Source: Litorilituus sp.
GTDB taxonomy: Bacteria; Pseudomonadota; Gammaproteobacteria; Enterobacterales; Alteromonadaceae
DNA: 64,000 nt
Direction: 5' to 3'
Assembly (NCBI GenBank): GCA_030754235.1
Contig: JASMAS010000046.1
Location: forward strand, 24,065-88,064
The position numbers and the translations under genes were made by a program. Shown piece by piece: positions 17,516 through 63,949 of this stretch. Position 1 is the first letter of the stretch; the number at the start of each line of letters is the position of its first letter. The notes below the pieces were generated by a model. That model was given only the letters and a program-made list of their open reading frames with translations, made no database searches and was not told the origin of the DNA.

Positions 17516-17665
17516 CAAAATCGAAACGTCATTGGTTTTGTTGTATTTTCTTCTATTTTCTATCCCTTTGTCACTCAAATGAACGTTTTTCTCTTTCATT
17601 TGAATAAATAAATCGCCAATTTATGAACTATTTATCTTAATGTATTAAATTACTTGATCTGGCAC

Positions 17666-17685
17666 AAACGATAACCATTTTTATT
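17666..17685. promoter_or_regulatory. Weak Fur-box-like site before TonB receptor gene
   Basis: AAACGATAACCATTTTTATT; its reverse complement agrees with the stronger Fur-like site upstream of the second receptor (61193-61211 plus one base) at 14 of 20 positions by my count. It is 77 bases before the receptor start. Suggestive only. Confidence 0.35.
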
Positions 17686-17761: not shown

Positions 17762-19900
17762 ATGAATAAGTTTTCTTCCCTATATCTAGCAATGTTTTAT
17801 ATACCAACATTAGTGCTAGCCAATCCACAATCAGATGCCAATAGTAACGCTACACAAGACGATGATATTGAAGTTATCCAAGTCATCAATTTACGCAGTA
17901 AATTAGAACAAGCAGGTCGTTTAAAAGATGTTATTCAGCAAACAGAAATTTTGGACTCTTTGCTGATTGAAAAGAAAAATGCTCTTAACTTAACCGCGGC
18001 TATTAACAATGAGCCTGGCGTTAATGTGTCAAATGAGTGTTCTATGTGTGGTGTAAAGCGCATTATGCTAAACGGCATGAAAGGCGAGCATACCACTATT
18101 CTTGTTGATGGTTTGCCAACTCACACTTTAATTTCTGGCTTTTACGGTGTTGATGCTATTGCTACTACCGGTGTAGACAGAATTGAAGTAGCGCGCGGTG
18201 CTGGTGCATCTTTAATTGCTCCTGAAGCAATTGGTGGTACTGTTAATATTGTTACTCGTCAAGCCTATGAAAATACAGCAAGTTTTGATTACGCAAAAGG
18301 ATCTCATGACTTTACTGCTTTTAAAGGTATGGGAACAGGTGTCTCTGAAGACGGCAAAACAGGGCTAACTTTTGTTGCTCAATATGATAAACAAAATCAA
18401 GAAGATCATGATAACAATGGTGTAAGTGAAGCCCCTTTCATGGAAAATGTTTCAATTACTGCTTTAGTTAGTCACGATATTAACGACAGTAACAATATAC
18501 AAGTAAGACTGTCGAATATTCAATCAGAAATTTTTGGTGGCCCTATTATTGGTGAAAATGCTATATCTATTGGTCAGGCATTAGGCACTTATGATGGTAT
18601 AGAGTCTGACTCATTATTTGAAGATAATGATGTAAGAAAGCAATTTATCGGTAAAGCATGGGAAACCACCGAATGGATTAATACTGCACGTGATGAAGCT
18701 TACCTTAAATGGTTAACAGAATTATCAAATTACACAACGTCTGAATTTGCCATCAGTTATGCCAAGCATAATCAAGATTCATTTTATGAAGGGATTGATT
18801 ATCAAGCAGAAGATACCATGGTTTATTTTCGTGCTAAATTCGATACCGAATTAAATGATGAGCATTTTATTACTTACGGCATCGACTCTCGCTCAGAAGA
18901 AATGCGTTCTTCAACTGACGCACTAGAAGCGGTTGAAGCATATCAAAGCGATGCATTTAATTACGATACTTTCGGCTTTTTTGTTCAAGATACTTGGACA
19001 CCTTCAGACAAACTAGAAGTAGCACTAGCCTTACGATTAGACAAAGTTACTGCTGATTTCATTGACCCAGAAAAAGTGGGTACTGAAATCGAACAAACCT
19101 TTTTTGCACCACGTGTTGATATGCGTTATTTCCATTCAGATGAACTTACATCACGTTTATCTGTTGGTCGTGGCTATCGAGCACCTTTATCATTTTTTGA
19201 AACCGACCATGGTATTTTAGATGCTGAATTAGGTTATCAAATTGATATCAGCAGCTTAGAAGAGTCTGTCTCGTTAAGTTACTCTTTAAATTACGATACT
19301 GAGACACTTGCGGCAACCTTTTCATTGGCACATTCAAAAGTTGACAACCTTGCCAGTTTAGAAGAAACGCCAGCGGGTGTGCCTTTTTTAACACAACTTC
19401 AAGAACAAGCTGACGTGACCACTGTCGACTTTACTACGGGTTATAATCTAACCGAGAACTTCACCGTAAACTTCAGCGCTGAAAAATTCTTCTATGATGA
19501 CAATTTTAAATCATCCTACGCTATTGCTCCTATTGAAGAACGTGCCTCACTTGAGTTTGATTACAGCATTGGTAATGTGAATATTTTCTGGAGTACGGTT
19601 TGGTTTGGCTCTAAAGATTTAAATGAGTTTGGTTATGAAGGTTATAACCGCTTGGGTGATCCTAGCTCAATTAAAACCACTAAAGGTTCAGCATTTTCAT
19701 CGTCAGATTTAAAAATTCAATACAAAATGTCTAAAAGCATGAAGCTTTATGCTGGTCTATCTAATGTGTTTGAATACACGCAAATTGAAGAAGGCGATAC
19801 ACCATTGTTTTATGATGCTAACGGTGGATACGATGTTGCCTATATCTACAGCTCACTACATGGCCGTGAATTCTATGCCGGCATAGAGGTTAAGCTATAG
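17762..19900 (+). CDS. TonB-dependent outer-membrane receptor with CSMCG plug motif (copy 1)
   Basis: The 712-residue protein has a signal peptide (about 1-20), a TonB-box-like stretch (IEVIQVINLR, about 37-45), a plug domain (about 50-170) and a beta-barrel ending in GREFYAGIEVKL with the terminal aromatic/hydrophobic pattern of outer-membrane proteins. The plug contains NECSMCG (C93, C96) directly before KRIMLNGMKGEHT, then LVDGLP and GTVNIVT, the usual plug landmarks. The Cys pair would face the periplasm or the barrel lumen. A closely related receptor lies at 61318-63456. The stop codon overlaps the GTG start of a secreted thioredoxin-fold gene. The substrate is unknown; iron or another metal chelate is inferred from the second copy. 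Confidence 0.9.
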   Translation: MNKFSSLYLAMFYIPTLVLANPQSDANSNATQDDDIEVIQVINLRSKLEQAGRLKDVIQQTEILDSLLIEKKNALNLTAAINNEPGVNVSNECSMCGVKRIMLNGMKGEHTTILVDGLPTHTLISGFYGVDAIATTGVDRIEVARGAGASLIAPEAIGGTVNIVTRQAYENTASFDYAKGSHDFTAFKGMGTGVSEDGKTGLTFVAQYDKQNQEDHDNNGVSEAPFMENVSITALVSHDINDSNNIQVRLSNIQSEIFGGPIIGENAISIGQALGTYDGIESDSLFEDNDVRKQFIGKAWETTEWINTARDEAYLKWLTELSNYTTSEFAISYAKHNQDSFYEGIDYQAEDTMVYFRAKFDTELNDEHFITYGIDSRSEEMRSSTDALEAVEAYQSDAFNYDTFGFFVQDTWTPSDKLEVALALRLDKVTADFIDPEKVGTEIEQTFFAPRVDMRYFHSDELTSRLSVGRGYRAPLSFFETDHGILDAELGYQIDISSLEESVSLSYSLNYDTETLAATFSLAHSKVDNLASLEETPAGVPFLTQLQEQADVTTVDFTTGYNLTENFTVNFSAEKFFYDDNFKSSYAIAPIEERASLEFDYSIGNVNIFWSTVWFGSKDLNEFGYEGYNRLGDPSSIKTTKGSAFSSSDLKIQYKMSKSMKLYAGLSNVFEYTQIEEGDTPLFYDANGGYDVAYIYSSLHGREFYAGIEVKL

Positions 19901-20409
19901 TGCCAACGTTTAGCCACTGTGTGTCTGTTATTTTATTGCTAGTAACATTGGTTGCTGGCAAGGCGTTAGCCTCAGATTTTTCAGACTCAATTGTTAATCA
20001 ATACCAGCTTAAATCATTAGCTAATAGTGACAACTTAGCAACAGTTACTGGTGATAAAGTAACTATTGCCATGCTCTATCAGCCTGATTGCAAATGGTGT
20101 AAAAAACAAGGGCAGTGGCTAGCTAAAGCACAAAACCAATGTAATAAAGACATAAATATTGTTTTAATTGGTAATAATGGTAACAAGCAACAGCTTAAGC
20201 GTGAATTAAAACACTTTCATCAAAAAATCCCTGCTTTTCAAGCAAATAGAAAGCTATTAACCGCTATAGGGGGCATTAAAGCTTCTCCTACTACACTGGT
20301 GTTTGATCAAAAAGGTAACCTTATTGCTAAAAGAAGAGGCTTTATCACTAATAGTAAATTAACGGATGTGGCTAATCTCATTACCCAAGGAAAATGTAAT
20401 ATAGCTTAG
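19900..20409 (+). CDS. Secreted thioredoxin-fold protein coupled to TonB receptor (copy 1)
   Basis: The 169-residue protein starts at GTG 19900, which shares its first base with the receptor's TAG stop; AGAGGT lies 10 bases before. A signal peptide (about 1-24, cut after KALA) sends it to the periplasm. The thioredoxin-like domain has LYQPDCKWCKKQ (C64, C67) and the cis-Pro region KASPTTLVFD. Two further cysteines (C81 and C166) align with those of the second copy at 63446-63949. Likely roles are reduction of a disulfide, perhaps the receptor's plug Cys pair, or binding/reduction of the imported metal; both are inference. Confidence 0.85.
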   Translation: MPTFSHCVSVILLLVTLVAGKALASDFSDSIVNQYQLKSLANSDNLATVTGDKVTIAMLYQPDCKWCKKQGQWLAKAQNQCNKDINIVLIGNNGNKQQLKRELKHFHQKIPAFQANRKLLTAIGGIKASPTTLVFDQKGNLIAKRRGFITNSKLTDVANLITQGKCNIA

Positions 20410-23691: not shown

Positions 23692-25086
23692 ATGTTTTTT
23701 CCTAAACAACTATTTTTTATCGCTATCGTACAGGTTTTCCTTACTTGCTTTGTCATTTTTATCTTTATCTCTCAAGAGTATCGAGAATTATCAGAACAAA
23801 GCCTAGTAACATTAGAAAAGTTTTTAATTGAACAAAAAAAGCAAGAGCTTGTGAATTACACCACCTTAGCCGTATCCGCTATTAGTCCCACCTACAATAA
23901 AACAGATATACCTTTAGCACAGGCAAAACAAAACGTAGCACAGATGATAGATAATATGCTTTACGCTGGAAAAGATGGCTATTTCTTTGCTTACGACAAT
24001 AAAGGCAATGGTATTTCTCACCCAAAAGAGCCTTTTCGAGTTGGCAAAAATTGGTGGGAATTAGAAAGTAGTAATGGTGATAAAATTATTCAAATACTCA
24101 TAGCCAACGCCCAGAAAGGTGGTGATTTTTACCGTTATACTTGGTCGAAACCTTCAGTCAATAAACCGCTAGATAAAATTGGTTACTCGGTATATCTCAA
24201 AGATTGGGATTGGATGTTAGGCACAGGCGTTTACTTAGATGATGTGAATAATCAGCTCAATAAGCTGCAACAATCAATAGACTCTCACATCTATAAAACT
24301 CAAAAAATTATTCTCTTTATCGCCATCTTATCAATTTTCACCCTTTTTACTTTTGGGCTGATTCTCAATCTAAGCCAAAAGAAAAAAAGTGACTTGAAAA
24401 TCAATGAATTAAGCCAGCGTATTATAGATATGCAAGAAGAAGAGCGACGCAGAATTTCACGAGAACTACACGATGGCATAGTACAAATTTTAGTCTCAAT
24501 TAAATATTCACTTGAAGCAACAGACCTTTATTTAATGCAGTGTAAACAAAGCAAACCACAACCATTAGTGGATTCCCAAGCAAACTTAGACGGGGCAATA
24601 AAAGAAATAAGGCGTATTTCACATCATTTGCACCCTCGTATTTTAGATGAGTTAGGACTATCTTCAGCCCTAGAAACTCTTGCGGTAGAATTTCATCAAC
24701 ACACTGGCATCCAAGTATCTGTAAAAAAACCAGCGGTCAGAAAATTATTATCCGATGAAATAAATATAACCCTCTATCGAGTAGTACAAGAGTCGCTAAC
24801 TAATATTGAAAAGCACTCACATGCCACGCAAGTTAACATAGGCATACTCATTGAAAAAAAAGGCTTAAAATTAACCATAGCAGATAATGGCCAAGGCTTT
24901 AATGCCAAAGTACAGGCCAACATAAAACAATGTGGTATTGGGCTTAGAAACTTAGCTGAGCGTGTTGAATATCATAATGGAACTTTTGAGTGTACCTCTT
25001 CAGGTAAGGGCACAAAAATAGTTGTTAACATTCCCAAATTACATTTTCATAGCCAAAAAGCAAAAATAATAGAGGACATTGCATGA
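23692..25086 (+). CDS. Cache-domain sensor histidine kinase (NarL-type, HisKA_3)
   Basis: The 464-residue membrane kinase has a first membrane helix (about 6-27), a periplasmic single-Cache domain (about 40-195, with GKDGYFFAYDNKGNGISHP and WDWMLGTGVYLDDV), a second helix (about 204-227), a HisKA_3 dimerisation domain with phospho-acceptor H260 in RRRISRELHDGIVQIL, and an ATPase domain with N box ESLTNIEKHSHA and G box DNGQGF. Cache domains of this kind bind small organic acids. It overlaps the response regulator gene by four bases. Being divergent from the TRAP operon, it probably senses the TRAP substrate and controls its uptake. Confidence 0.92.
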   Translation: MFFPKQLFFIAIVQVFLTCFVIFIFISQEYRELSEQSLVTLEKFLIEQKKQELVNYTTLAVSAISPTYNKTDIPLAQAKQNVAQMIDNMLYAGKDGYFFAYDNKGNGISHPKEPFRVGKNWWELESSNGDKIIQILIANAQKGGDFYRYTWSKPSVNKPLDKIGYSVYLKDWDWMLGTGVYLDDVNNQLNKLQQSIDSHIYKTQKIILFIAILSIFTLFTFGLILNLSQKKKSDLKINELSQRIIDMQEEERRRISRELHDGIVQILVSIKYSLEATDLYLMQCKQSKPQPLVDSQANLDGAIKEIRRISHHLHPRILDELGLSSALETLAVEFHQHTGIQVSVKKPAVRKLLSDEINITLYRVVQESLTNIEKHSHATQVNIGILIEKKGLKLTIADNGQGFNAKVQANIKQCGIGLRNLAERVEYHNGTFECTSSGKGTKIVVNIPKLHFHSQKAKIIEDIA

Positions 25087-25736
25087 CAAATACTCAAGCC
25101 CATGAAAATAAGGTTATTACCGTTTTACTCGTGGATGATCACCCTATGGTACAAAGCGGTTTAAGCGCCTGTTTGTCTTTTTATCATGATGTGAAAGTGA
25201 TAGGCAACGTTAACGATGGTCAATATGCATTAGAAAAAGCCGTTGAACTGCAGCCCGATGTTATTTTAATGGATATCAGCATGCCAACATTAAATGGTAT
25301 TGATGCCACTGAAATTATCACTGAACAGCTTGAAAACTCTAAGGTATTAATTTTTAGCATGCATAACAACCTAGAATTTGTCACTAGTGCTATTCAAGCA
25401 GGTGCCAGTGGTTATATATTAAAAGACACTAGTTCAGAAGAAGTGTATTACGCGATTAAAGCCGTTGCCAGTGGCAAAAAACACTATAGTAGTTCTATCA
25501 CGCAAATGTTGATTGAAAACCCGGTAAGAGAAGGGTCAGCTAAGCTCACAACTAGAGAGCAACTTGTTCTTGCTTATATTGCTAAAGGGTTATCTAGTAA
25601 AGAAATAGCAAATGAATTATTTATTAGTTTTCGTACCGTAGAAGCGCATCGTCGTAATATCAAATCCAAATTGAAAATTGATACTTTAGCTGCGCTGATT
25701 CGTTACGCCGTTAATTATGGCTTAGAGGGTAATTAG
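25083..25736 (+). CDS. LuxR/NarL-family response regulator
   Basis: The 217-residue protein has a receiver domain (DDH at 18-20, phospho-acceptor D64 in ILMDISMP, K114 in YILKD) and a C-terminal LuxR-type helix-turn-helix (about 155-205, LTTREQLVLAYIAKGLSSKEIA, then FRTVEAHRRNIKSKL). It is the partner of the overlapping histidine kinase gene. Likely targets are the divergent TRAP operon and its own operon through the palindrome at 23589-23604. Confidence 0.94.
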   Translation: MTNTQAHENKVITVLLVDDHPMVQSGLSACLSFYHDVKVIGNVNDGQYALEKAVELQPDVILMDISMPTLNGIDATEIITEQLENSKVLIFSMHNNLEFVTSAIQAGASGYILKDTSSEEVYYAIKAVASGKKHYSSSITQMLIENPVREGSAKLTTREQLVLAYIAKGLSSKEIANELFISFRTVEAHRRNIKSKLKIDTLAALIRYAVNYGLEGN

Positions 25737-25826: not shown

Positions 25827-26879
25827 CTACCTGAAGCTTTCATTAATTCCAGATAACACTCGATTTCCTGGGCATAAAACCTCTTGTTCGAGTTTATTTA
25901 AAGCCGTATCACAAGTATCATTAATGTCATGAAAATCACTCGCTGTTGGCTCTAAATAAAAAAGCCCAGTTAAAATTTCACCTTGGGATTTATGTTGTTC
26001 AATAGCCATAATGGCTTTACTGGCATTATGGCTATTGTAATCTTCATTGAGTTTTTTAATGCGCATGATAGAGCCATCATGTAAACAGACATCTTCACAA
26101 TCCCCCTCTTGAGCGTTACTGGTTATTTCCGTTTTTACTGGTACAAAATCCGCCACAGCTCCTGTGGTTATGTGATCGTGTACATAGTCATATGAACGCG
26201 TAGAACCATTGTGATTATTGAAAGTAACACAAGGCGATACAATATCAATAAACGCAAAACCTTTATGGCTTATTGCCGCTTTAATCAAAGGTACTAATTG
26301 TTTTTTATCCCCTGAAAAGCTGCGCGCAACAAAGGTTGCCCCCAGTTGCAATGCCATCACGCACAAGTCTATATCTGAAAACAAACTCAAATCACCTGCT
26401 TTATTTTTTACTCCTTTATCTGCCGTCGCAGCAAGCTGACCTTTAGTTAAGCCATAAACCCCATTATTGGCAACCATATAAACCATATTCAACTGTCTAC
26501 GAACCACATGGGCAAATTGACCAAAGCCAATTGAGGCACTATCACCATCGCCAGACATGGTTAAATAAAGCAACTCTTGATTAGCCAAATTCGCCCCCGT
26601 AGCCACAGAAGGCATTCTGCCGTGTACTGAGTTAAAACCATGTGCTTTACTAAGAAAATAATTCGGCGCTTTTGAGGAACAGCCTATACCCGAAATCTTG
26701 GCCACTTTGTGAGGCTCAATAGATAATTCATGACAGGCCTGTACTATGGCAGAAGTCAGTGCATCATGACCACAACCAGCACACAAAGTTGATAGCGCCC
26801 CCTCATAATCTCGATAAGTTAAGCCCAAATCATTTTTCGGCAGACGAGGGTGCTTAAAGGTCGATTTAATAAAACTCAT
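25827..26879 (-). CDS. korB: 2-oxoacid:ferredoxin oxidoreductase, beta subunit
   Basis: The 350-residue subunit binds thiamine diphosphate. LCAGCGHDALTSAI near the N-terminus and SGIGCSSKAPNYF carry conserved cysteines of the 4Fe-4S cluster, and MSGDGDSASIGFGQF with NNGVYGLTKGQ is the TPP/Mg motif. The enzyme decarboxylates a 2-oxoacid to the acyl-CoA and reduces ferredoxin; 2-oxoglutarate is the common substrate of this subunit type, but pyruvate or other acids cannot be excluded. It is the last gene of a three-gene operon, 9 bases after the alpha subunit gene. The C-terminal about 60 residues are not typical of the core family. Confidence 0.9.
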   Translation of the reverse strand: MSFIKSTFKHPRLPKNDLGLTYRDYEGALSTLCAGCGHDALTSAIVQACHELSIEPHKVAKISGIGCSSKAPNYFLSKAHGFNSVHGRMPSVATGANLANQELLYLTMSGDGDSASIGFGQFAHVVRRQLNMVYMVANNGVYGLTKGQLAATADKGVKNKAGDLSLFSDIDLCVMALQLGATFVARSFSGDKKQLVPLIKAAISHKGFAFIDIVSPCVTFNNHNGSTRSYDYVHDHITTGAVADFVPVKTEITSNAQEGDCEDVCLHDGSIMRIKKLNEDYNSHNASKAIMAIEQHKSQGEILTGLFYLEPTASDFHDINDTCDTALNKLEQEVLCPGNRVLSGINESFR

Positions 26880-26888
26880 ATCACGCTC

Positions 26889-28787
26889 CTAGCCTACTTT
26901 CTTATTAATTGATTTATCTGAATTTTTTTTAGCGAAATGCCTTAGCACCCCTTGCACAACTTGATAGCTTGTCATTGACAGGCCATCATAGTTAAGAATA
27001 CTGATTAACTTTTTCGGTTCAAGTTGTAGCTCATTGACCAATAATGTTTTCATTTGACCATCTCGGTTTTGTTCAATTACAAAAACCTCTTTATAGGCTT
27101 GAATAAACGCTGCTATGTCATAGTGAAATGGAAATGCTTTTATACGTAACGTATCTGCGGTGATGCCTTGGCTATTGAGTTCATCAATCGCCTCATTCAT
27201 AGGGTGACTGGTCGTGCCAAAATATAATAATGCAATTTGCGCTTTTTTCTTGTCTTGATTGATTTCAGGCTTAGGCAAATAATTAACTGCAGTTTTAAAT
27301 TTTTGACTTAAACGGTCAACATTATCGACATAGTGCTCTGGCTTTTCAGTGTAGCGAGCATAGTGGTCACGTGAAGTACCACGATTAAAGTAGGCACCTT
27401 TTTCTGGGTGAGTGCCAGGCACAGTTCGATAACAAATCCCATCACTGTCCACATCTAAATATCGACCATATGCTTGCAGCTCATCTAACTGCTCTCTATT
27501 TAGTATTTTACCTTTTTGATAAGCATGGCTGTCCTGCCAGACAAACTCGTCAGTTAAATGGTCATTCATACCTAAATCTAAATCAGACATTATAATCACT
27601 GGGGTTTGACATTGATCCGCAATATCAAATGCTTGTGCCCCCATTTCAAAACATTCAGTTGGGTTTGCTGGGAACAAGAGTATTTGTTTGGTATCACCGT
27701 GAGAGGCATAAGCACAACTTAAAATGTCTGACTGCTGAGTACGCGTTGGCATGCCTGTTGATGGCCCCGCCCTTTGCACATTTATTAATACCATGGGAAT
27801 TTCAGTAAAATAGGCCAAACCAAGAAACTCTGTCATGAGTGAAACACCTGGGCCACTGGTTGCGGTAAAAGCACGAGCACCATTCCACCCAGCGCCTATA
27901 GCAACACCTATTGCAGCCAATTCGTCTTCTACTTGTACTATGGCATAATTTTTCTTGCCCGATGCGGGATCAATTCTTAAACGATTACAGTAACTAGCAA
28001 ACTTTTCAATAACCGATGTTGAGGGCGTAATAGGATACCAACCCACCACAGTAGCACCACCGTATACGGCGCCTAAACCTGAGGCGGTATTACCATCCAC
28101 CATAATACGATTTTTCGCTAAATCACGCCCTTGAACTTGAATAGCCAAAGGACACATAAAGTGCTTATTGGCATACTGGTACCCTAACTCTAAGGCATAA
28201 ATATTAGGAGTAATAAGCTTCTCTTTACCCTTAAATTGATCTCTAACTAACCCTTTAAGAACCGTAAAGTCCATATTGAGTGATGCCGCTAGTGCACCGA
28301 CATAAATCACATTCTTAAAAAGTTGTCGTTGGCGTGGATCGCTATACTCTTTTAAGCAAATATTTGAAATAGGTATGCCTAAATAGTTAATATCTTCTCT
28401 TATTAGTCTATCTGGTAGATTTTTACTCGAATCATATAAAAAGTAACCTCCTGCCATAACGCTATTCACGTCTGCATCAATGCTTTGCGCATTCATGGCG
28501 ACCACCATTTCTGATTTTCCACCACGTCGGCCTAGATAGTTTTTTTCAGACACTCGCACTTCATACCAAGTGGGCATACCTTGTATATTAGATGGGAAAA
28601 TATTCTTTGCTGAAACAGGTATTCCCATACGGAGAATAGCTTTAGCAAACATATTATTGGCACTTGCAGATCCAGTCCCATTAGTATTAGCAAAGCGAAC
28701 GACAAAGTCATTAACCAAAGTCTTTACATCAATCATTTTCTGATAACATTTTTGGCTTTCAGTTGAAGAAGTTACTTCTATATTCAT
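26889..28787 (-). CDS. korA: 2-oxoacid:ferredoxin oxidoreductase, fused gamma-alpha subunit
   Basis: The 632-residue subunit is a fusion: an N-terminal gamma domain (about 20-215, GTGSASANNMFAKAILRMG) and an alpha pyrimidine-binding domain starting near GNTASGLGAVYGGATVVGWYPITPSTS, followed by GPGVSLMTEFLGLAYFTEIPMVLINVQRAGPSTGMPT, a family hallmark. It forms the heterodimer with the downstream beta subunit and holds the site for the pyrimidine ring of TPP and for CoA. The start codon overlaps the stop of the GltD-like gene (ATGA). Such fused subunits are usual for bacterial KorA-type enzymes. Confidence 0.91.
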   Translation of the reverse strand: MNIEVTSSTESQKCYQKMIDVKTLVNDFVVRFANTNGTGSASANNMFAKAILRMGIPVSAKNIFPSNIQGMPTWYEVRVSEKNYLGRRGGKSEMVVAMNAQSIDADVNSVMAGGYFLYDSSKNLPDRLIREDINYLGIPISNICLKEYSDPRQRQLFKNVIYVGALAASLNMDFTVLKGLVRDQFKGKEKLITPNIYALELGYQYANKHFMCPLAIQVQGRDLAKNRIMVDGNTASGLGAVYGGATVVGWYPITPSTSVIEKFASYCNRLRIDPASGKKNYAIVQVEDELAAIGVAIGAGWNGARAFTATSGPGVSLMTEFLGLAYFTEIPMVLINVQRAGPSTGMPTRTQQSDILSCAYASHGDTKQILLFPANPTECFEMGAQAFDIADQCQTPVIIMSDLDLGMNDHLTDEFVWQDSHAYQKGKILNREQLDELQAYGRYLDVDSDGICYRTVPGTHPEKGAYFNRGTSRDHYARYTEKPEHYVDNVDRLSQKFKTAVNYLPKPEINQDKKKAQIALLYFGTTSHPMNEAIDELNSQGITADTLRIKAFPFHYDIAAFIQAYKEVFVIEQNRDGQMKTLLVNELQLEPKKLISILNYDGLSMTSYQVVQGVLRHFAKKNSDKSINKKVG

Positions 28788-30574
28788 GAGTTAACTCCTC
28801 CTTTAATGGTGGCATGGGTATTATTAAGCTTCAATTTTTTCATATCCCAAGCCCCTGTTGGACATCGTTCGGCACATAAACCGCAATGTAAGCAAACATC
28901 TTCATCTTTCACCATAACATGACCTGTTTTTAGTGGTGCCGATATTAAAAGCGGCTGCTCCTTATTTAACTCAGCGACTTTAAATTGTTTTACCATTTGA
29001 CCATCATTAGCTTCTTCAATAAAATTGATACAGTCCATTGGGCACACATCTTCACAGGCTGAGCATTCGATACAGGTACTTTCGCTAAACACGGTGTGAA
29101 TATCACAATTCAAACAGCGACTTGCTTCTTCTAAGGCTAACTTCTCATCAAAGCCTAACTCAACTTCAGTGGACAACTGTTTTACTGCCTCTTCCCAAGC
29201 AACATGAGGGACTAAATTACGTTGTTGATGATCAATCACACTTTGATAACTCCAATCATGAATACCCATCTTTTGGCTAACCAAGTTAAAAGAGCTATCA
29301 CTTCTTTCATCCACCGGATCGGCATTTTGGCAAAACAAGTCAATTGAAATGGCCACTTGATGACCATTCGCCACAGCAGAAATGATATTTTTAGGTCCAA
29401 ACGCGGCATCACCACCAAAAAACACTTTCGGGTGAGTAGACTGTAATGATTTTTTATTCAGTTGAGGTAACTGCCATTGATTAAACTCAATGCCAATATC
29501 ACGCTCAATCCAAGCAAAGGATGTATCTTGCCCAACAGCAACCAAGACTAAGTCACCGTCAACAATCAATACTTCGCCCGTAGGTTGCAAACAACGATTT
29601 CCCATGTTGTCATAGACTGACTCAACTTGTTCAAACTTCATGCCCGTTAACTTGCCATCGGTAATAATATATTCAAGCGGGCTGTAGTTAGGTAGAAGAG
29701 CAATGCCTTCTGCAACGGCATCGTCTTTTTCCCATGGCGAAGCTTTCATGGCTTCATAACTTGAACGAACTATGACATTAACTTCTTTAGCACCAAGGCG
29801 CTTGGCCGTTCTACAGCAATCCATCGCTGTATTACCTCCACCAAGTACAATAACTTTATCTGGCACACCTTTGATATGTTCAAAGCTAACATTGGCTAAA
29901 AAATTAATGCCTGTTTGAATTTTATCACCACCTTGTTCATGGCCAGGAATTTTAAGCCAACGACCATTGGGCGCACCAGTGCCAACAAAGATAGCGTCAA
30001 AGTTGGCTTGCAACAATGTCTCTAAACTACTAATTTCTTCTCCAAAGTGACATTCCAAGCCCATCTCAATAATATAATTAAGCTCTTCATCAAGTACGGT
30101 TTCAGGCAAACGAAACGCGGGGATTTGACTGCGCATCATGCCACCCGCTTTACTATCTCGCTCAAAGAGCACTACATCGTAACCTAAGGGTAATAAATTT
30201 CGCGCTACCGTCATTGAAGTAGGTCCTGCACCAATCAAGGCAACTCGCTTCCCATTTTTATTACGGGGAATTTTCGGCAAAAATGGACTAATGTCTTCTT
30301 TATGATCACTGGCAACACGCTTTAATCGACAAATTGCAACGGGGCTTTCTTCTACCCTACCACGTCGACACGCGGGTTCGCAGGGTCGATCACAAACGCG
30401 GCCTAAAACGCCAGGAAACACATTAGAATGCCAATTAACTAAATAAGCATCGGTATAACGTTTTTCAGCGATTAAACGAATATATTCTGGCACAGGAGTG
30501 TGAGCAGGACAGGCTTGCTGGCAATCAACCACATTAAGAAAATGCTGGTAATGACTCGTATCAGTTTTCTTCAA
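28784..30574 (-). CDS. GltD-like FAD/NAD(P)H oxidoreductase with N- and C-terminal Fe-S regions
   Basis: The 596-residue protein has an N-terminal GltD-type Fe-S domain (C18, C22, C61, C65, C69, C82), an FAD site VALIGAGPTSMTVA (111-124), a NAD(P)H site VIVLGGGNTAMDCC (about 245) and a C-terminal two-cluster ferredoxin domain: CIECSACEDVCPMDC (501-515) and CLHCGLCAERCP (561-572). It resembles the small subunit of glutamate synthase and NfnB-type proteins, but no large glutamate synthase subunit is present. As first gene of the oxidoreductase operon it probably links the 2-oxoacid enzyme to the NAD(P)H pool, acting as its ferredoxin and ferredoxin:NAD(P) reductase in one; this is inference. 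Confidence 0.85.
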   Translation of the reverse strand: MKKTDTSHYQHFLNVVDCQQACPAHTPVPEYIRLIAEKRYTDAYLVNWHSNVFPGVLGRVCDRPCEPACRRGRVEESPVAICRLKRVASDHKEDISPFLPKIPRNKNGKRVALIGAGPTSMTVARNLLPLGYDVVLFERDSKAGGMMRSQIPAFRLPETVLDEELNYIIEMGLECHFGEEISSLETLLQANFDAIFVGTGAPNGRWLKIPGHEQGGDKIQTGINFLANVSFEHIKGVPDKVIVLGGGNTAMDCCRTAKRLGAKEVNVIVRSSYEAMKASPWEKDDAVAEGIALLPNYSPLEYIITDGKLTGMKFEQVESVYDNMGNRCLQPTGEVLIVDGDLVLVAVGQDTSFAWIERDIGIEFNQWQLPQLNKKSLQSTHPKVFFGGDAAFGPKNIISAVANGHQVAISIDLFCQNADPVDERSDSSFNLVSQKMGIHDWSYQSVIDHQQRNLVPHVAWEEAVKQLSTEVELGFDEKLALEEASRCLNCDIHTVFSESTCIECSACEDVCPMDCINFIEEANDGQMVKQFKVAELNKEQPLLISAPLKTGHVMVKDEDVCLHCGLCAERCPTGAWDMKKLKLNNTHATIKGGVNS

Positions 30575-57361: not shown

Positions 57362-58384
57362 ATGCTCCAAAAATTAATAAATTTTTTTTCTAAGACCATC
57401 ATATCTATCTCGTTAATCATAACAACATTCTCTGCTTCAGCGATTGACGAAGTTAATGTGTACTCATACCGACAAGCCTTTTTGGTTGAACCTTTATTTG
57501 AACAGTTTACTAAACAGTCAGGTATCAAAGTCAATGTGGTTTTTGCCAAAAAAGGGATGGCTGAACGCCTAGCCCGCGAAGGTCAATATAGCCCTGCCGA
57601 CATTTTACTGACTACAGATATCAGTCGTTTAATTGAACTACGCGATCGTGATTTATTACAAGCAAACAACGCTGAAGTCTTGATTGATGCCATTCCTAGC
57701 CAATACCGTTCTACAGACAATACTTGGTTCGCCTTAACAACCCGTGTTCGTAATATCTATTCTTCTAAACGTTTAGGTGATATAAATATTAGCTATGAAG
57801 ATTTAGCGGACAGTCAATATAAGGGTCGTATTTGTACCCGTAGTGGTAAACACCCTTATACCGTAGCATTAGTTGCCTCAATGATAGCTGAACATGGTGA
57901 AACAAAAACACTCGCTTGGTTAGAAAGCTTTAAAGCTAATTTAGCACGAAAACCACAGGGCAATGATAGAGGTCAAGTACAGGCCATTCATCAAAACCTA
58001 TGTGACATATCGTTAGGTAACAGCTATTATTTTGGCAAAATGCTTAAAGATAAAAATCAAAAAGTTTGGGCCGATGGGGTTAATATCAACTTTCCTAATC
58101 AAAATAATCGCGGAGCTCACGTTAATATTTCAGGTATTGGTTTAGCAAAACACTCTCCAAATTTAGACAATGCCAAAGCGTTGATGGCATTTTTAGTTTC
58201 CAAGCCAGCACAACAACTGTATGCTGAAACGAATATGGAATATCCTGTACGTCCCGGTGTAGCACCCTCAAAATTAGTCGCGTCATGGGGTGACTTTAAA
58301 GCCGATACTTTATCATTAGAAACAATTGCGAAAAATAGAAAATTAGCATTAAAATTAATAGATAAAGCTAGGTTTGACCTATAA
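57362..58384 (+). CDS. fbpA: Fe(3+) ABC transporter, periplasmic binding protein
   Basis: The 340-residue protein has a signal peptide (about 1-27, cut after ASA) and the ferric-binding FbpA/FutA fold. NVYSYRQAFLVEPLFEQFTKQSGIKVNVVFAKKG is the first conserved block; NSYYFGKML holds the tyrosine pair that binds iron in this family. The protein is not a lipoprotein. The ATG follows TAGGTTTA. It is the first gene of fbpABC, behind a Fur-like site. Confidence 0.91.
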   Translation: MLQKLINFFSKTIISISLIITTFSASAIDEVNVYSYRQAFLVEPLFEQFTKQSGIKVNVVFAKKGMAERLAREGQYSPADILLTTDISRLIELRDRDLLQANNAEVLIDAIPSQYRSTDNTWFALTTRVRNIYSSKRLGDINISYEDLADSQYKGRICTRSGKHPYTVALVASMIAEHGETKTLAWLESFKANLARKPQGNDRGQVQAIHQNLCDISLGNSYYFGKMLKDKNQKVWADGVNINFPNQNNRGAHVNISGIGLAKHSPNLDNAKALMAFLVSKPAQQLYAETNMEYPVRPGVAPSKLVASWGDFKADTLSLETIAKNRKLALKLIDKARFDL

Positions 58385-58412
58385 ATTATTTCAAATAATT
58401 AGATGATTCTTT

Positions 58413-60083
58413 GTGACAAAAATAGTCAAAAACAAACGTGGGCGAAAAGCGCTATTACGTAGCCCTATATATATAACATCATTATTACTGATGATACCTG
58501 TATTGGTGATGTTAGCCGCTGGCGTAAGTGTTTCAACAGATTTATTTAGCCATCTATGGCAAACAGTATTGCCTGACTATATTGCGAACACCTTATTACT
58601 AGGTGTTTTTGTCGTCATATTATCGATAATATTTGGAGTGATTAGTGCCGCGTTAATTGTTCATACCAACATTAAAGGTAAAGCCGTGCTACGCTGGCTT
58701 TTAATGTTGCCACTGGCAATGCCCGCCTATTTAGTTGCTTACCTTTATACCGATCTATTTGATTATGCCGGGCCTGTACAACGTACTATGCGTGCTTGGT
58801 TTCAATGGCAGTCACCCAGTGATTATGTTTTTTTTGATATTCGCACCTTAGGTGGCGCCAGTATTATTATTGCCTTAGTCCTTTTTCCTTATATCTATAT
58901 GTTGGCACGAACCGCCTTTGAACAGCAAGATCAAAACCTATTGCGAGTAAGTCGGTTATTGGGCTTAAGCGCAACACAGAGCTTTTATAAGGTTGCGCTG
59001 CCATTAGCTAGACCTGCTATTGCCGTGGCTGCAAGTTTGGTCTTAATGGAAACCTTAGCTGATTTTGCCACCGTACAATATTTTGCTGTAAACACCTTAA
59101 CCACGGCTATTTATGATACTTGGCTAGGGTATAGTGACTTAGCTGCGGCCAATGCCTTAGCCAGCGTGTTGATGTTGTTTATTTTTTTCACCCTAGTAAT
59201 AGAGCAACGCGCACGGGCTGGCCAAGCACACCAATCAAATCGAATTAATAAAAATCATCAACTGATAAACCTCTCTATCTCTGCACAGTTTTTTGCCAGC
59301 AGTTTTTGCTGGTTGCTTGCCATTGCTGGCTTTATTTTACCTTTTATTCTGTTAGTTATTATGGCTTGGCAACACAGTAATTTTGAACAGTTTTTATTGC
59401 TTGTGCCAACAGGTATTAACAGCATTGAAATTGCAGTTTGGGCAGCAAGCCTGACCACTATTTTGGCTATGCTTTTCACCTTATTTAAACGATTAACCAC
59501 CGGAAAATGGCGCAGCCTACCCATGCAAATTTCAGGTTTCGGCTACGCTATTCCTGGTACAGTATTAGCCATGGCAATGTTATCAACTTTCGCACCTATC
59601 GATTATTTCATTAATGACATTGCTCATTTGCTAGGGTTAAAAAGACCTGGGTTATTATTGTCTGGTTCAATCTTTGCGATTATTTTTGCGTATATAGTGC
59701 GTTTTGCCGCAATTGCCAATGGCACTATTGATAGCGGTATTAAACAAATCCCAAAATCTCTTGATTATGCCCCGGCCAGTTTAGGCGCTAGTTTAATAAA
59801 AACATTAACTAAAATTCATATTCCCTTACTAAAGTCATCCATTTGGGTTGCCTGGCTATTAGTCTTTGTTGAAGCAATGAAAGAATTACCGGCAGTATTA
59901 TTATTAAGACCTTTTAATTATGAGACCTTAAGCACCCACATCTATCAACTTATTTCTGATGAAATGTTAGAGCAAGGAGCCTTAGGCGCCATATTCATTG
60001 TTTTACTAGGTTTATTACCTATTGTGTGGCTTAATCAACATAAAAATGACAGCCATAATAACAACACTGAGGAACAACCGTGA
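58413..60083 (+). CDS. fbpB: Fe(3+) ABC transporter permease
   Basis: The 556-residue inner-membrane protein has about 12 membrane segments in two halves, each with an ABC permease loop (EAA motif; SRLLGLSATQSFYKVALPLARPAI in the first half and ASLGASLIKTLTKIHIPLLKSS in the second). The fused two-half form is usual for FbpB. The start is GTG 58413. Its stop overlaps the GTG start of fbpC by four bases. It forms the channel that FbpC drives. Confidence 0.92.
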   Translation: MTKIVKNKRGRKALLRSPIYITSLLLMIPVLVMLAAGVSVSTDLFSHLWQTVLPDYIANTLLLGVFVVILSIIFGVISAALIVHTNIKGKAVLRWLLMLPLAMPAYLVAYLYTDLFDYAGPVQRTMRAWFQWQSPSDYVFFDIRTLGGASIIIALVLFPYIYMLARTAFEQQDQNLLRVSRLLGLSATQSFYKVALPLARPAIAVAASLVLMETLADFATVQYFAVNTLTTAIYDTWLGYSDLAAANALASVLMLFIFFTLVIEQRARAGQAHQSNRINKNHQLINLSISAQFFASSFCWLLAIAGFILPFILLVIMAWQHSNFEQFLLLVPTGINSIEIAVWAASLTTILAMLFTLFKRLTTGKWRSLPMQISGFGYAIPGTVLAMAMLSTFAPIDYFINDIAHLLGLKRPGLLLSGSIFAIIFAYIVRFAAIANGTIDSGIKQIPKSLDYAPASLGASLIKTLTKIHIPLLKSSIWVAWLLVFVEAMKELPAVLLLRPFNYETLSTHIYQLISDEMLEQGALGAIFIVLLGLLPIVWLNQHKNDSHNNNTEEQP

Positions 60084-61144
60084 GCGAGTTATTAACGATC
60101 AGTAAACTGTCTGTCGAGCTACAAAAAAAGCAAATTTTATCGGGAATTGAACTTAGGCTCTGTGCGGGTGAAATTCTTGGTTTGGTTGGTTCTAGCGGTT
60201 GCGGAAAAACAACCCTATTAAACACCATTGCCGGCTTTATTGAACAAAGTCATGGGCAAATTCAAATAGCCAATAATCCCGCGATTACTCCTGAAAACAT
60301 TACCGCCCCAGAGCACAGAAATATTGGCATGATATTTCAAGATTATGCACTATTTCCCCATTTGACCGTTGAGCAAAACATTTGTTTTGGTATCAATAAA
60401 CTGGCTAAAACTGAACAACAAACGCGAATAATACAACTGCTAGCGCTACTCGAACTTTCAGGGTTAGAAAAACGCTTTCCCCATCAACTCTCAGGTGGTC
60501 AACAGCAGCGTGTTGCTATCGCGAGAGCACTCGCTCCGCAACCAAAATTATTATTGTTAGATGAACCTTTTTCTAATATAGACGCCCGACTACGTAATGA
60601 ACTTATGCTAGAAATGCGTCTATTATTGAAAAAGTTAGAGATGACGGCAATTTTTGTTACCCACAACAAAGACGAAGTATTTACCTTTGCCGATAAAATA
60701 GCACTAATGCACCAAGGAAAAATTTTACAAACGGGTTCACCAGCTCATGTTTGCCAACAACCCAAAAACTGGCAAGTCGCTGACTTTCTACAGCTGGGCA
60801 GCTGGATCCCTGTTCAAATAAAGCAGATCAACACCCATAAAGTTCAATATATCACGGCCATCGGCAGCTTTTATTCAAACTCAATTGCACAGATTACCCA
60901 AGAGAACCAACAACTGTTATTAAAAAATAAACATATTGAGCTCATTGAACAAGGCAAGGCTAACGTTCAAGTTGACTACATTCAAGTTACTGAGCAAGGC
61001 TATCATTACGATTTAAGTAGTTTAGATAATACCGACAACTTAGCATTTCACAAACTTAGCTTTTATAGTGAAACCTTACTTCATCTTGGACAGCAAATTT
61101 CTCTGCAAATAAAATCCCACCAAGCACTCACCTTTATCAAATAG
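60080..61144 (+). CDS. fbpC: Fe(3+) ABC transporter ATP-binding protein
   Basis: The 354-residue ATPase has Walker A GSSGCGKT (37-44), the signature LSGGQQQRVAIARAL, Walker B LLLLDEPFSN and the switch histidine in IFVTHNKDE. A C-terminal domain of about 110 residues follows, as usual for FbpC. It is in the iron-transport operon with fbpA and fbpB, four-base overlap with fbpB. The start is GTG, within a GTGA overlap. Confidence 0.93.
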   Translation: MSELLTISKLSVELQKKQILSGIELRLCAGEILGLVGSSGCGKTTLLNTIAGFIEQSHGQIQIANNPAITPENITAPEHRNIGMIFQDYALFPHLTVEQNICFGINKLAKTEQQTRIIQLLALLELSGLEKRFPHQLSGGQQQRVAIARALAPQPKLLLLDEPFSNIDARLRNELMLEMRLLLKKLEMTAIFVTHNKDEVFTFADKIALMHQGKILQTGSPAHVCQQPKNWQVADFLQLGSWIPVQIKQINTHKVQYITAIGSFYSNSIAQITQENQQLLLKNKHIELIEQGKANVQVDYIQVTEQGYHYDLSSLDNTDNLAFHKLSFYSETLLHLGQQISLQIKSHQALTFIK

Positions 61145-61192
61145 GAACCTTGATTTAGCACAACAAAACGGCAAACTCCCATTGTAATCTCA

Positions 61193-61211
61193 AATGAGAA
61201 CCATTATCATT
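61193..61211. promoter_or_regulatory. Fur box upstream of second TonB receptor
   Basis: AATGAGAACCATTATCATT, a 9-1-9 dyad, is close to the Fur consensus and contains the full ATTATCATT half site. It lies 106 bases before the receptor start. The receptor should be induced when iron is short. Confidence 0.78.
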
Positions 61212-61317: not shown

Positions 61318-63456
61318 ATGAGAATAAAATCCAGTGTTTTTTGTGCATTGTTGTGCGCTCTTTCCAGCTATGCCGTTGCTAATGGTGACCAAAAAAACCA
61401 AACAGAACAAATCATCGAAGAAAATATTGAAAAAATTGAAGTGTTCGGTGTACGCCGCCGTTTAACCAGTTCAGGTGCCTTAAAAGACAATATTGCTAAA
61501 ACTGAATTACTCACTGATGAATTTATCGAAAATACCCAAGCGGCTAGTTTGGCAGATGCTATTCAAAACGCCATTGGCATTCGAGTTTCTAACGAATGTT
61601 CCATGTGTGGTGCCAAACGCATCATGATCAACGGTATGAAAGGTGAGCATACCAATGTGTTAATAGATGGCATTCCAATGCACACCATGATTTCAGGCTT
61701 TTATGGTATGGACTCGGTTGCCGCCACTGGCATAGGCGCAATAGAAATTGCTCGCGGCGCAGGAGCCTCATTAACCGCACCGGAAGCTATTGGTGGTACA
61801 GTAAATATGGTCACCAAAGATGCCACAGAAAGAGAAGTACAAGTTAACTTATCTGCTGGTGAACTAGGCTACAGAAAAGCCTCTATTATGGCGATGGGAG
61901 TCAGTGAAGACAATAATAGCCATATTACCTTAGTAGGTCAGTACGATAACAGAGATCAATTTGACGGTGATAACAATGGTGTAAGTGAAAATCCAGTCTT
62001 AACCAACTCATCGATGACCATTTATTTTTCCCACGATTTTAGCCACACCGACAATATACGAATTCGTTACAACCAAAGTAACTCAGAGGTTTTTGGTGGC
62101 CCAGTATTAGGTGATACTGTACACAGTATATCAGACGCATTATCTAGCGTAGCTTACGGTGAGGCTGATAATCTTTTTGTAGATAACGACGTACGCAAAA
62201 CCTACATTGGTAACCCATGGGAAACGGCAGAGTGGGTAAAAACAGACCGAGAGGAAGTCTCTATCAGCTGGTTACATGAAATCAACAGTGATTTTAACAT
62301 TACCACTAGCCTAGCCTCCATAAATCACATTCAAGACTCTTTCTACGAAGGCGTAGATTATTACGCTGAAGATACCATGCTCTATGCTAGCATTCGTGCA
62401 AACTATTACCTCAATGACAGTCACTTACTCACTTTTGGTAGTGATATTCGTCATGAACAAATGCGCTCCGACTCAAGAGCCTTAGAGCTATTAGACAACT
62501 ACGTAGAAGATAGCTTTGACTACATTACCAAAGGCATTTTTATTCAAGATACCTGGACACCACATGAAGATTTTGAACTAGCAACAGCAATTCGTATTGA
62601 TAATATTCAAGCAAATTTTGTTGATAGCTCAAAGCCCGGCACAGAAATAAACAAAACCTTGTTTTCACCACGTATTGATATGCGTTACTTACATAACGAA
62701 CAATTCACATCACGTTTATCTTTTGGTCAAGGCTACCGTGCGCCACTGTCTTTTTTCGAAAGCGATCACGGCATACTTGATTCGGGCAAAGGGTACTTAG
62801 TTGAAGTTGACCAACCTGAACGTTCAAACAGCGCCACTTACTCACTAAACTACGATAACAACAAACTGACCTCAACCTTATCTTTTGCTTATACGCAAGT
62901 AGATCACTTAGCCACATTAGAGCATACCGAAGAAGGCACACCAGTACTAACACAATTAGAGAAGGCTGCTTCAGTAACCGCTATTGATCTGGCAATAAAT
63001 TATCAAATCTTTGAAGAATTAGCACTATCAGCCATTATTGAGCAATACAACTATGACGAAACCTTCAAAGAGTCTTTCGCCATTGCACCAGCAGAACAAC
63101 GAATAACCTTAAGTTCAGACTGGGATTATCAAGGTTGGGATATCATCACATCGGCAACTTGGGTAGGTAGTCGTGATTTAAGTGATTATGGTTATGATGG
63201 TTACAATCGCAACGACGCCACTGAAAAGAAAAGCACCATGGCACCCTCATATTTCACTGTTGATTTAAAAATAGTCAAAGCCCTAAGTAAAGCTTTGAAA
63301 GTCTATATTGGGGCAACAAACTTACTCGACTATAACCAAGCTGATGATATGCAAAGCCCTATCATGTTCGATGCAGAAGGTAACTATGATGTGGTCTACA
63401 TTTATGGTCCATTACGGGGAAGAACCGCCTACGCTGGACTCAAATATGAATTCTAG
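61318..63456 (+). CDS. TonB-dependent outer-membrane receptor with CSMCG plug motif (copy 2)
   Basis: The 712-residue protein has a signal peptide (about 1-22, cut near VANG), a TonB-box-like IEKIEVFGVR stretch (about 37-47), a plug with NECSMCG (C94, C97) and a barrel ending GRTAYAGLKYEF. In the plug region of 75 residues 57 are identical to copy 1 by my count, and both mature lengths are the same. The frame is open to 61234 but only ATG 61318 gives a proper signal peptide. It lies downstream of fbpABC behind its own Fur box, so iron or an iron chelate is the best substrate guess. Its stop overlaps the thioredoxin-fold gene by 11 bases. Confidence 0.91.
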   Translation: MRIKSSVFCALLCALSSYAVANGDQKNQTEQIIEENIEKIEVFGVRRRLTSSGALKDNIAKTELLTDEFIENTQAASLADAIQNAIGIRVSNECSMCGAKRIMINGMKGEHTNVLIDGIPMHTMISGFYGMDSVAATGIGAIEIARGAGASLTAPEAIGGTVNMVTKDATEREVQVNLSAGELGYRKASIMAMGVSEDNNSHITLVGQYDNRDQFDGDNNGVSENPVLTNSSMTIYFSHDFSHTDNIRIRYNQSNSEVFGGPVLGDTVHSISDALSSVAYGEADNLFVDNDVRKTYIGNPWETAEWVKTDREEVSISWLHEINSDFNITTSLASINHIQDSFYEGVDYYAEDTMLYASIRANYYLNDSHLLTFGSDIRHEQMRSDSRALELLDNYVEDSFDYITKGIFIQDTWTPHEDFELATAIRIDNIQANFVDSSKPGTEINKTLFSPRIDMRYLHNEQFTSRLSFGQGYRAPLSFFESDHGILDSGKGYLVEVDQPERSNSATYSLNYDNNKLTSTLSFAYTQVDHLATLEHTEEGTPVLTQLEKAASVTAIDLAINYQIFEELALSAIIEQYNYDETFKESFAIAPAEQRITLSSDWDYQGWDIITSATWVGSRDLSDYGYDGYNRNDATEKKSTMAPSYFTVDLKIVKALSKALKVYIGATNLLDYNQADDMQSPIMFDAEGNYDVVYIYGPLRGRTAYAGLKYEF

Positions 63457-63949
63457 CCTTATTAAGGTACTACTTTTAATTTGCTTATCACCATTAGCGT
63501 TTTTCGCTAGTGGCGAAAGTATTTACCAGCAATCCATGTTACGCCTTAATAGTAACAACCACGAAAAACCAGTTAAGCAAACACTGGCTAACTTTCAAGG
63601 AAAGCCCTTAATAACGGCCTTTTTTATGCCTAACTGTCGCTGGTGCCAGCGCCAACATAAAGCCCTAAAAAAACTACATCAACACTGCCCTAACATACAA
63701 ACTGTTATGCTCGGCGTACAGGGTAGCAAACAAAAACTACGCAAAGCATTACAACGAGAAAAAAACACTTTCCCCGCCTATGTAGCCAACAACACAATTA
63801 TTAAAGCTATAGGTAGCAAAAGTCCTGTGCCCATGATGCTATTTTTTAATACTCAAGGCACTCTCGTATTTAAAACAGTGGGTTACACACCCGAACCTAA
63901 ATTAACAGCGCTGTTCACACAACATAACATTAACGTTTGCAGCGCCTAG
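63446..63949 (+). CDS. Secreted thioredoxin-fold protein coupled to TonB receptor (copy 2)
   Basis: The 167-residue protein has a signal peptide (about 1-23) and a thioredoxin-like domain with FMPNCRWCQRQ (C64, C67) and cis-Pro region SPVPMMLFF. Two further cysteines are C81 and C165. CxxC and C81 fall at exactly the same positions as in copy 1, and the fourth is one residue apart. The ATG at 63446 lies inside the last codons of the receptor gene (11-base overlap), so the two are made together. The frame is open to 63308 but that would run deep into the receptor gene. Redox service of the receptor or of the imported metal is inferred. Confidence 0.84.
   Translation: MNSSLIKVLLLICLSPLAFFASGESIYQQSMLRLNSNNHEKPVKQTLANFQGKPLITAFFMPNCRWCQRQHKALKKLHQHCPNIQTVMLGVQGSKQKLRKALQREKNTFPAYVANNTIIKAIGSKSPVPMMLFFNTQGTLVFKTVGYTPEPKLTALFTQHNINVCSA

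What the first reader, a model, noticed from the sequence alone, without database searches (positions are those of the whole stretch)
61318..63949. Two-gene module, TonB receptor plus secreted thioredoxin-fold protein, present twice in the window
17762-20409 and 61318-63949 carry the same pair in the same order: a 712-residue receptor followed by a roughly 168-residue secreted CxWC protein. In both, start and stop codons overlap (one base in copy 1, 11 bases in copy 2). Keeping both genes fused in translation through a duplication implies that the two proteins work together. I know no characterised system in which a TonB receptor has its own dedicated thioredoxin-like partner.
Basis: partly seen in the sequence, partly recalled or inferred. 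Interest (0 to 1): 0.82.

Follow-up and report, generated by a model that had tools for sequence, protein, structure and literature searches.

The report
Thiol-plug receptor with its own thioredoxin
A predicted bacterial outer-membrane uptake receptor, likely for iron or manganese, has only two cysteines beyond its predicted export signal, both in the plug that closes its pore, and in nearly all relatives examined it is encoded next to a thioredoxin-like gene whose product is predicted to keep those two cysteines reduced; our paper searches found one such pairing in print, in another bacterium and with other motifs.

Summary
Confirmed: the window has two copies of a pair, a 712-residue TonB-dependent receptor followed by a 167/169-residue exported CxWC thioredoxin-fold gene, with starts overlapping stops by 1 and 11 bases. 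The link is real. The gene follows the receptor in 79 of 79 assessable named loci and 13 of 13 family loci; one clear exception exists. No other gene is broadly shared, and receptor and thioredoxin trees largely mirror each other. The copies belong to two deep clades (47% and 26% identical), so they are not a recent duplication. The kind is not wholly new: a 2026 paper describes a CQNC-plug receptor plus CAPC thioredoxin-fold pair in Stenotrophomonas, MntR-controlled. The pair here is a relative with other motifs and often Fur-type operators. Likely mechanism (inferred): a periplasmic TlpA/CcmG-like reductase keeps the plug thiols reduced for Fe/Mn uptake.

The parts
61318..63456 (+). TonB-dependent receptor, copy 2 (712 aa)
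   Evidence: Plug and barrel Pfam above cut-off; AlphaFold2 model mean pLDDT 86.6, pTM 0.85; TonB-transporter fold, BtuB, FecA, OprC, Cir among the listed matches
61597..61608 (+). plug CxxC, Cys94-Ser-Met-Cys97, in the loop between plug strands 88-92 and 100-104
   Evidence: both Cys invariant in 46 of 46 aligned receptors and the only Cys from residue 41 on in 45 of 46; loop placement from the model and the PDB alignments
62758..62781 (+). barrel motif with Glu481, His484, Asp488, candidate hard-metal ligands
   Evidence: these three invariant in 46 of 46, one CSIC and one CQNC relative included; ligand role inferred
63446..63949 (+). exported thioredoxin-fold protein, copy 2 (167 aa), 11-base overlap with the receptor
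   Evidence: model pLDDT 92, pTM 0.83; nearest folds ResA, further down CcmG and TlpA in mixed disulfide with a cytochrome oxidase subunit II
63635..63646 (+). active-site CRWC (Cys64-Cys67)
   Evidence: both Cys in 79 of 79 partner genes, the Trp in 78; further conserved Cys81 and Cys165
61190..61208 (+). Fur-like box upstream of copy 2
   Evidence: 14 of 19 matches to the recalled consensus, shuffle p 0.005
17762..19900 (+). TonB-dependent receptor, copy 1 (712 aa)
18038..18049 (+). plug CSMC of copy 1
19900..20409 (+). exported thioredoxin-fold protein, copy 1 (169 aa, GTG start, 1-base overlap)
20089..20100 (+). active-site CKWC of copy 1
17664..17682 (+). weak Fur-like site upstream of copy 1
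   Evidence: 12 of 19 matches, shuffle p 0.455, not significant
57362..61144 (+). substrate-binding protein, permease and ATPase genes (ABC importer) directly upstream of copy 2; context only, also upstream in L025 but not widely conserved

Best explanation
Each pair is a stand-alone two-gene cassette in which the thioredoxin-fold protein likely works in the periplasm as a TlpA/CcmG-like reductase that keeps the receptor's plug cysteines (Cys94 and Cys97 in copy 2) as free thiols, which the receptor likely needs to bind and import an iron- or manganese-containing substrate. Shown by sequence: the gene pairing, its recurrence in unrelated gene neighbourhoods, a plug CxxC as the only cysteines past the signal region, and Fur-type sites before many receptors. 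Predicted by model: a thioredoxin fold nearest to ResA. Inferred: that the plug CxxC is the thioredoxin's substrate; that the direction is reduction; that the thiols (perhaps with barrel Glu481, His484 and Asp488) bind the metal or its carrier; and that the redox partner meets the plug either before barrel assembly or when TonB pulls the labile half of the plug into the periplasm.
For: Linkage: 79 of 79 assessable of 80 named loci (the 80th contig ends 55 nt past the receptor stop); 13 of 13 family loci, the two window copies included (five of the 13 are places also in the named set). Only the receptor (80 of 80 loci) and thioredoxin (77 of 80) clusters recur broadly; the next cluster reaches 15 loci. 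Target: the plug CxxC are the only Cys from residue 41 on in 45 of 46 receptors. Specificity: 2 of 2 plug-CxxC receptors of this genome have the gene, 0 of 31 assessable others. Other branches: CSIC-plug receptors carry a CPPC thioredoxin (2 of 2 loci), CQNC-plug receptors a CAPC one (2 of 2, same genus); plug-CxxC receptors fall on one side of a branch (SH-aLRT 88). Reductase side: nearest folds are ResA; CcmG and TlpA are also listed. Metal: Fur-like box of 14 or more of 19 before 45 of 81 receptors against 38 of 874 control ORFs; a DtxR/MntR-family gene is divergent from the receptor in L045, and two TAGCN4GCTA sites lie upstream in each of L045 and L047. Precedent: OprC binds copper through a plug cysteine (PMC8610252, passages). 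Access: simulations of FpvAI show the N-terminal plug half unravelling under pull (PMC10994204, passages); by offset from the FpvA alignment CxxC would fall in that half.
Against: G710 has a CSMC receptor and no partner gene beside it or elsewhere at E<=1e-3, so the partner is not always needed. No experiment. The CxxC loop is predicted to face outward, away from a periplasmic protein in the closed state. The fold list also holds mycobacterial secreted DsbE/DsbF-type proteins (recalled to be oxidising), so the fold alone does not fix the direction of the reaction. Copy 1 has no significant Fur box, and 36 of 81 receptors do not reach 14 of 19. Oxidation state, substrate and metal are unknown. 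One of the two search patterns contains NECSM, so the survey was in part selected for the plug motif (L028-L032, with NECAM, were found without it).
Confidence: 0.55

Rival explanations
1. The thioredoxin-fold protein is a metal or substrate acceptor (Sco-like): it takes the metal from the plug through its own CxxC and hands it to an inner-membrane importer.
For: Plug CxxC and partner CxxC would form a relay; no periplasmic binding protein recurs with the cassette.
Against: The nearest folds are thiol oxidoreductases and the proline expected in cis before the active site is invariant (P129); an extra metal site in the partner was not sought; an ABC importer is adjacent in copy 2 and L025 among the neighbourhoods listed.
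Confidence: 0.15
2. The partner reduces the imported substrate (a disulfide- or thiol-type metallophore, or ferric iron) after import; the plug CxxC recognises the same ligand.
For: Fur-type sites; a redox step for metal release in the periplasm is a familiar need (established knowledge).
Against: No further gene family, so no metallophore synthesis set, travels widely with the cassette; of 33 assessable plug receptors in this genome only the two with CxxC have the partner.
Confidence: 0.15
3. The partner oxidises or isomerises a structural plug disulfide during receptor biogenesis (DsbA/DsbC-like).
For: A CxxC in an exported protein is a normal DsbA target; gene overlap would give co-production; secreted oxidising DsbE-type proteins are also in the fold list (their direction recalled).
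Against: A purely structural disulfide would be served by general Dsb enzymes and need no dedicated gene; the best fold matches are ResA.
Confidence: 0.1
4. The two genes merely travel together without working together.
For: One receptor without the partner.
Against: 79 of 79 and 13 of 13 loci across varied neighbourhoods, three plug motifs each with a thioredoxin gene, largely mirrored trees.
Confidence: 0.05

Closest known systems
TBDR-pTFP locus orf2357-orf2358 of Stenotrophomonas maltophilia Sm18 (PMC13217887; outline with abstract, passages and sections 21, 23, 28 seen)
   Same: Bicistronic TonB receptor plus periplasmic thioredoxin-fold gene; plug CxxC; metal-starvation control; the authors also suggest the partner may reduce the plug motif. 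Its likely counterparts here, L117 and L200, join the CxxC receptors in the tree.
   Different: CQNC plug and CAPC partner against CSMC and CxWC here; L117 is 24% identical to copy 2; MntR box and mntR/mntH neighbours there, no TAGCN4GCTA site upstream of either window copy, Fur-type sites in many relatives; the CAPC partners L186 and L200 are not close to ours.
OprC, copper TonB-dependent transporter (PMC8610252, passages)
   Same: TonB-transporter fold; a plug cysteine plus barrel residues bind the metal.
   Different: OprC uses CxxxM-HxM with one plug Cys; here CxxC, and no thioredoxin partner is known to us for OprC (recalled, not searched).
TlpA, CcmG/DsbE, ResA (reducing extracytoplasmic thioredoxins)
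   Same: Fold and CxxC; TlpA and CcmG reduce thiols of metal or heme sites in exported proteins (recalled; 4txv and 1kng).
   Different: Sequence far below the DsbE and ResA model cut-offs; here tied to an outer-membrane receptor gene.
BtuB, CirA, PfeA receptors
   Same: Plug similarity in sequence.
   Different: The CirA and PfeA loop that aligns with CSMC has no CxxC; all NCBIfam receptor models listed score below cut-off.

Membership tests
TonB-dependent transporter superfamily | Plug domain plus barrel | tested here: met
S. maltophilia TBDR-pTFP module | Receptor directly followed by a periplasmic thioredoxin-fold gene | tested here: met
   export read from the sequence only
S. maltophilia TBDR-pTFP module | CQNC plug motif | tested here: not met
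   CSMC in both copies; both Cys columns shared with the CQNC row
S. maltophilia TBDR-pTFP module | CAPC active site in the partner | tested here: not met
   CRWC and CKWC
S. maltophilia TBDR-pTFP module | MntR box upstream | tested here: inconclusive
   No TAGCN4GCTA upstream of either window copy (core recalled from E. coli and present before L117 and L200), but the paper's own 25-bp motif was not available to test
Common ancestry of CSMC and CQNC receptors | Plug-CxxC receptors on one branch | tested here: inconclusive
   one side of a branch, SH-aLRT 88, long branches present, outgroup from one genome only
One origin of the three partner thioredoxins | Partners form one clade against generic thioredoxins | tested here: inconclusive
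   free tree does not group them; grouped tree not rejected, p-AU 0.062; four generic rows only
OprC copper receptor | CxxxM plug motif | tested here: not met
   no Met four residues after Cys94 or Cys97
DsbE/CcmG or ResA families | NCBIfam cut-off score | tested here: not met
   20.0-26.3 bits against cut-offs 123.15 and 170
Fur regulon | Fur binding upstream | not testable with these tools
   only consensus matches: copy 2 14 of 19, copy 1 12 of 19

The most novel reading that the evidence does not exclude
Thiol-plug receptors are a general class of outer-membrane importers whose transport cycle is coupled to periplasmic thiol redox: each TonB pull draws the labile plug half with its CxxC into the periplasm, where a dedicated thioredoxin-fold protein, recruited separately in at least two of the three branches (CSMC/CxWC, CSIC/CPPC, CQNC/CAPC), recharges the thiols for the next Fe or Mn cargo.
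Probability: 0.25. Interest if true: 0.82.

Novelty: new variant of a known kind. Interest (0 to 1): 0.56.

Why it matters
If true, some outer-membrane importers depend on thiol chemistry that a periplasmic reductase must maintain, which links iron or manganese hunger to periplasmic redox state. It also carries a one-paper observation in Stenotrophomonas over to marine Gammaproteobacteria and, through the CSIC branch, to Betaproteobacteria, and narrows the question to two cysteines that can be tested directly.

Tried and rejected
Recent duplication in the window: rejected. Larger conserved operon: rejected, only narrowly shared neighbours. Siderophore, heme or B12 receptor family by NCBIfam: all listed models below cut-off. 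Plasmid-borne cassette: no match at E<=1e-30 in 72,556 plasmid records with receptor copy 1 or with L109. Viral contigs, queried with thioredoxin 2: 12 pattern matches, none a relative. Separate recruitment of the three partner thioredoxins: suggested by profile scores (CSIC and CQNC partners 14.1 and 12.9 bits; three generic ones 55.9, 38.5, 27.7) but not shown (p-AU 0.062); the row generic_L193 was a wrong-strand ORF and is not used. Copper: CrtA (PMC12914433, passages) is said to have no conserved Cys, and the word thioredoxin does not occur in its text; TccA (PMC12617631, passages) shows no such partner in the passages seen. S. oneidensis SO_1482 is listed in an iron-acquisition module and with a predicted Fur motif (PMC2667191, PMC12442407, passages), but whether it belongs here was not tested; PMC5603553 (passages) had nothing on a thioredoxin. 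Bacteroidota could not be sampled: the genome behind L045, titled Flavobacteriaceae, drew as its phylum a set that holds a place identical to that of G238. Distances between plug Cys and barrel residues could not be measured because no coordinates are returned.

Full report
What is there. The window holds two receptor-thioredoxin pairs: 17762-19900 with 19900-20409, and 61318-63456 with 63446-63949. Both receptors are 712 residues with plug and barrel domains over the Pfam cut-offs. Their partners, 169 and 167 residues, have N-terminal hydrophobic signal-like segments (seen in sequence; no signal predictor was available) and CKWC or CRWC active sites. The window ends at the end of its contig, so the gene that begins after copy 2 cannot be read.

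Is the pairing real? A survey of 147 genomes of the family found receptor matches at E<=1e-60 in 12 genomes, 13 places in all, the two of the window included; all 13 are followed by a CxWC gene. A scan of named species genomes found 144 relatives and kept the best 80. In 79 of 80 a CxxC thioredoxin-like ORF follows; the 80th contig stops 55 nt after the receptor. One of the scan's two patterns contains the plug motif, so the sample is in part selected for it; L028-L032, with CAMC, came in without it. The other 64 relatives were not seen. Among four further CSMC loci from phylum and class searches, three have the gene and one, G710, does not, neither in the 14 kb fetched nor elsewhere at E<=1e-3. 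In the tree that receptor pairs with one that has a partner (SH-aLRT 87), which fits a loss. Neighbourhood clustering of the 80 loci shows no other gene broadly shared: the receptor cluster covers 80 loci, the thioredoxin cluster 77, the next 15. The cassette is patchy: 12 of 147 family genomes, 7 of 398 phylum genomes at E<=1e-50 (both counts include the window's own genome).

Matching histories. For 58 receptor-partner pairs (thinned at 12% receptor distance from 80: 78 named loci and the two window copies), pairwise distances correlate with r 0.83, against at most 0.125 in 2000 permutations. The trees agree in most small and middle groups, including Shewanella rows that fall in several separate places in both. 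They disagree for the P. luteoviolacea group, for the deep order of the main clades, and for a few long or weakly placed rows (L050, L095, L100). Copy 1 is sister to Thalassotalea loyana L094 in both trees; copy 2 groups with L024, L025, L026 and then Pseudoalteromonas L028 and L029 in both. So the window does not show a recent duplication but two old lineages in one genome. The MAG behind L024 also carries L101, a copy-1-type pair.

Why a thioredoxin? All 46 aligned receptors carry a CxxC in the plug, and in 45 of 46 these are the only cysteines from residue 41 on. Against PDB sequences the motif falls in the loop just before the plug strand that leads to the conserved Gly in CirA and PfeA, and in the model of copy 2 it lies between strands 88-92 and 100-104. 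This genome has 36 plug receptors. The two with plug CxxC have the partner; of the 34 others none has CxxC in the first 330 residues of its frame, and of the 31 whose downstream side is held none has a thioredoxin-like gene there, judged from the listed ORFs of 100 aa or more. A CSIC-plug relative (L109, 30% identical to copy 2) is followed by a CPPC thioredoxin, as is its relative L202; 120 of the 120 listed of 675 protein hits of that receptor carry a plug CxxC, with named hosts such as Achromobacter, Variovorax and Methylobacillus. A CQNC-plug relative (L117, and L200 at 99%) is followed by a CAPC thioredoxin, and L117 has a DtxR/MntR-type gene in the same locus. All 16 plug-CxxC receptors put in a tree fall on one side of a branch against 17 other receptors of this genome (SH-aLRT 88).

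Which metal? Fur-like sites of at least 14 of 19 bases lie before 45 of 81 receptor starts (79 of the 80 named loci plus the two window copies) and before 38 of 874 control ORFs of the same loci. Related loci are counted singly, so these are not 81 independent cases. Copy 2 has such a site (p 0.005); copy 1 does not. In L045 a DtxR/MntR-family gene is divergent from the receptor, and L045 and L047 each have two TAGCN4GCTA sites upstream of the receptor (2 of 81 receptors; 10 of 874 controls); the same core precedes the CQNC receptors L117 and L200. In S. maltophilia the reporter of the related locus was detected only under joint Mn and Fe limitation (PMC13217887, section 23). Three residues of one barrel motif, Glu481, His484 and Asp488, are invariant in all 46 receptors, the CSIC and CQNC rows included. 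I take Fe/Mn as most likely, not shown. Of the neighbourhoods listed, the ABC genes upstream of copy 2 recur in L025 alone.

How it most likely works. The partner model (pLDDT 92) is closest to ResA, with CcmG and TlpA in mixed disulfide with a cytochrome oxidase subunit also listed, mostly extracytoplasmic reductases; mycobacterial DsbE/DsbF-type proteins, recalled to be oxidising, are in the list too, so direction is inferred. OprC shows that a plug cysteine can be a metal ligand (PMC8610252, passages). I therefore infer that the partner keeps Cys94 and Cys97 reduced. It could act on the unfolded receptor in the periplasm, or on the mature receptor when TonB pulls the plug: in simulations of FpvAI the N-terminal plug half unravels first (PMC10994204, passages), and by offset from the FpvA alignment the CxxC would fall in that half. 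This offset is an estimate. Rivals are a Sco-like acceptor, a substrate reductase, and a disulfide-forming enzyme.

What is known. PMC13217887 describes the same kind of locus in S. maltophilia with the suggestion that the partner may reduce the plug motif, and reports synteny in Lysobacterales, Sphingomonadales and Opitutales. The pair here shares the architecture but not CQNC or CAPC, and no MntR core was found upstream, so I call it a variant, not a member. Eight paper searches showed no other description of a TonB receptor with a dedicated thioredoxin; only the listings (capped) and the passages named were seen, and most subscription papers are not held.

Verdict. A real, recurrent, dedicated pair with a clear candidate target; the kind was described once, months ago; the mechanism is untested in both.

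Noticed in passing
L185 (G710:C19), receptor 4591-6720: CSMC-plug receptor with no partner thioredoxin nearby or in its genome at E<=1e-3; a natural test case for whether the partner is dispensable.
   Followed up: partly
L045 3366-3830, and upstream of the receptor in L045 and L047: An MntR/DtxR-family gene divergent from the CSMC receptor in L045, and two tandem TAGCN4GCTA sites upstream of the receptor in both loci: a link to manganese within the CSMC branch.
   Followed up: partly
L045 record title: Titled Flavobacteriaceae, but the phylum search centred on its genome drew a place identical to one of G238, a genome of the window's own class, so the title is probably wrong.
   Followed up: partly
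L027 2194-4347: Receptor reading frame interrupted: the plug start with NECSMCG lies in one ORF and the rest in the next; whether error or real break is unknown.
   Followed up: no
window 57362-61144: ABC importer (SBP_bac_6 type; below the cut-offs of the NCBIfam models shown for 2-aminoethylphosphonate, thiamine or iron) directly upstream of copy 2; also in L025.
   Followed up: partly
window 25827-30574: Three adjacent genes: TPP-binding and POR subunits of a 2-oxoacid:ferredoxin oxidoreductase and a GltD-like FAD/4Fe-4S protein.
   Followed up: no
window 20538-25736: TRAP transporter genes (DctM, DctP) divergent from a Cache-domain histidine kinase, just downstream of copy 1.
   Followed up: no
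residues 216-224 of the copy 2 receptor (A1, A3): Strongly conserved DxDxNGVSE-like stretch in CSMC receptors, calcium-loop-like in look; not tested.
   Followed up: no
trees: The partner seems to evolve about three to four times faster than the receptor (median end branch 0.43 against 0.12; the two trees used different models, so a rough figure).
   Followed up: partly
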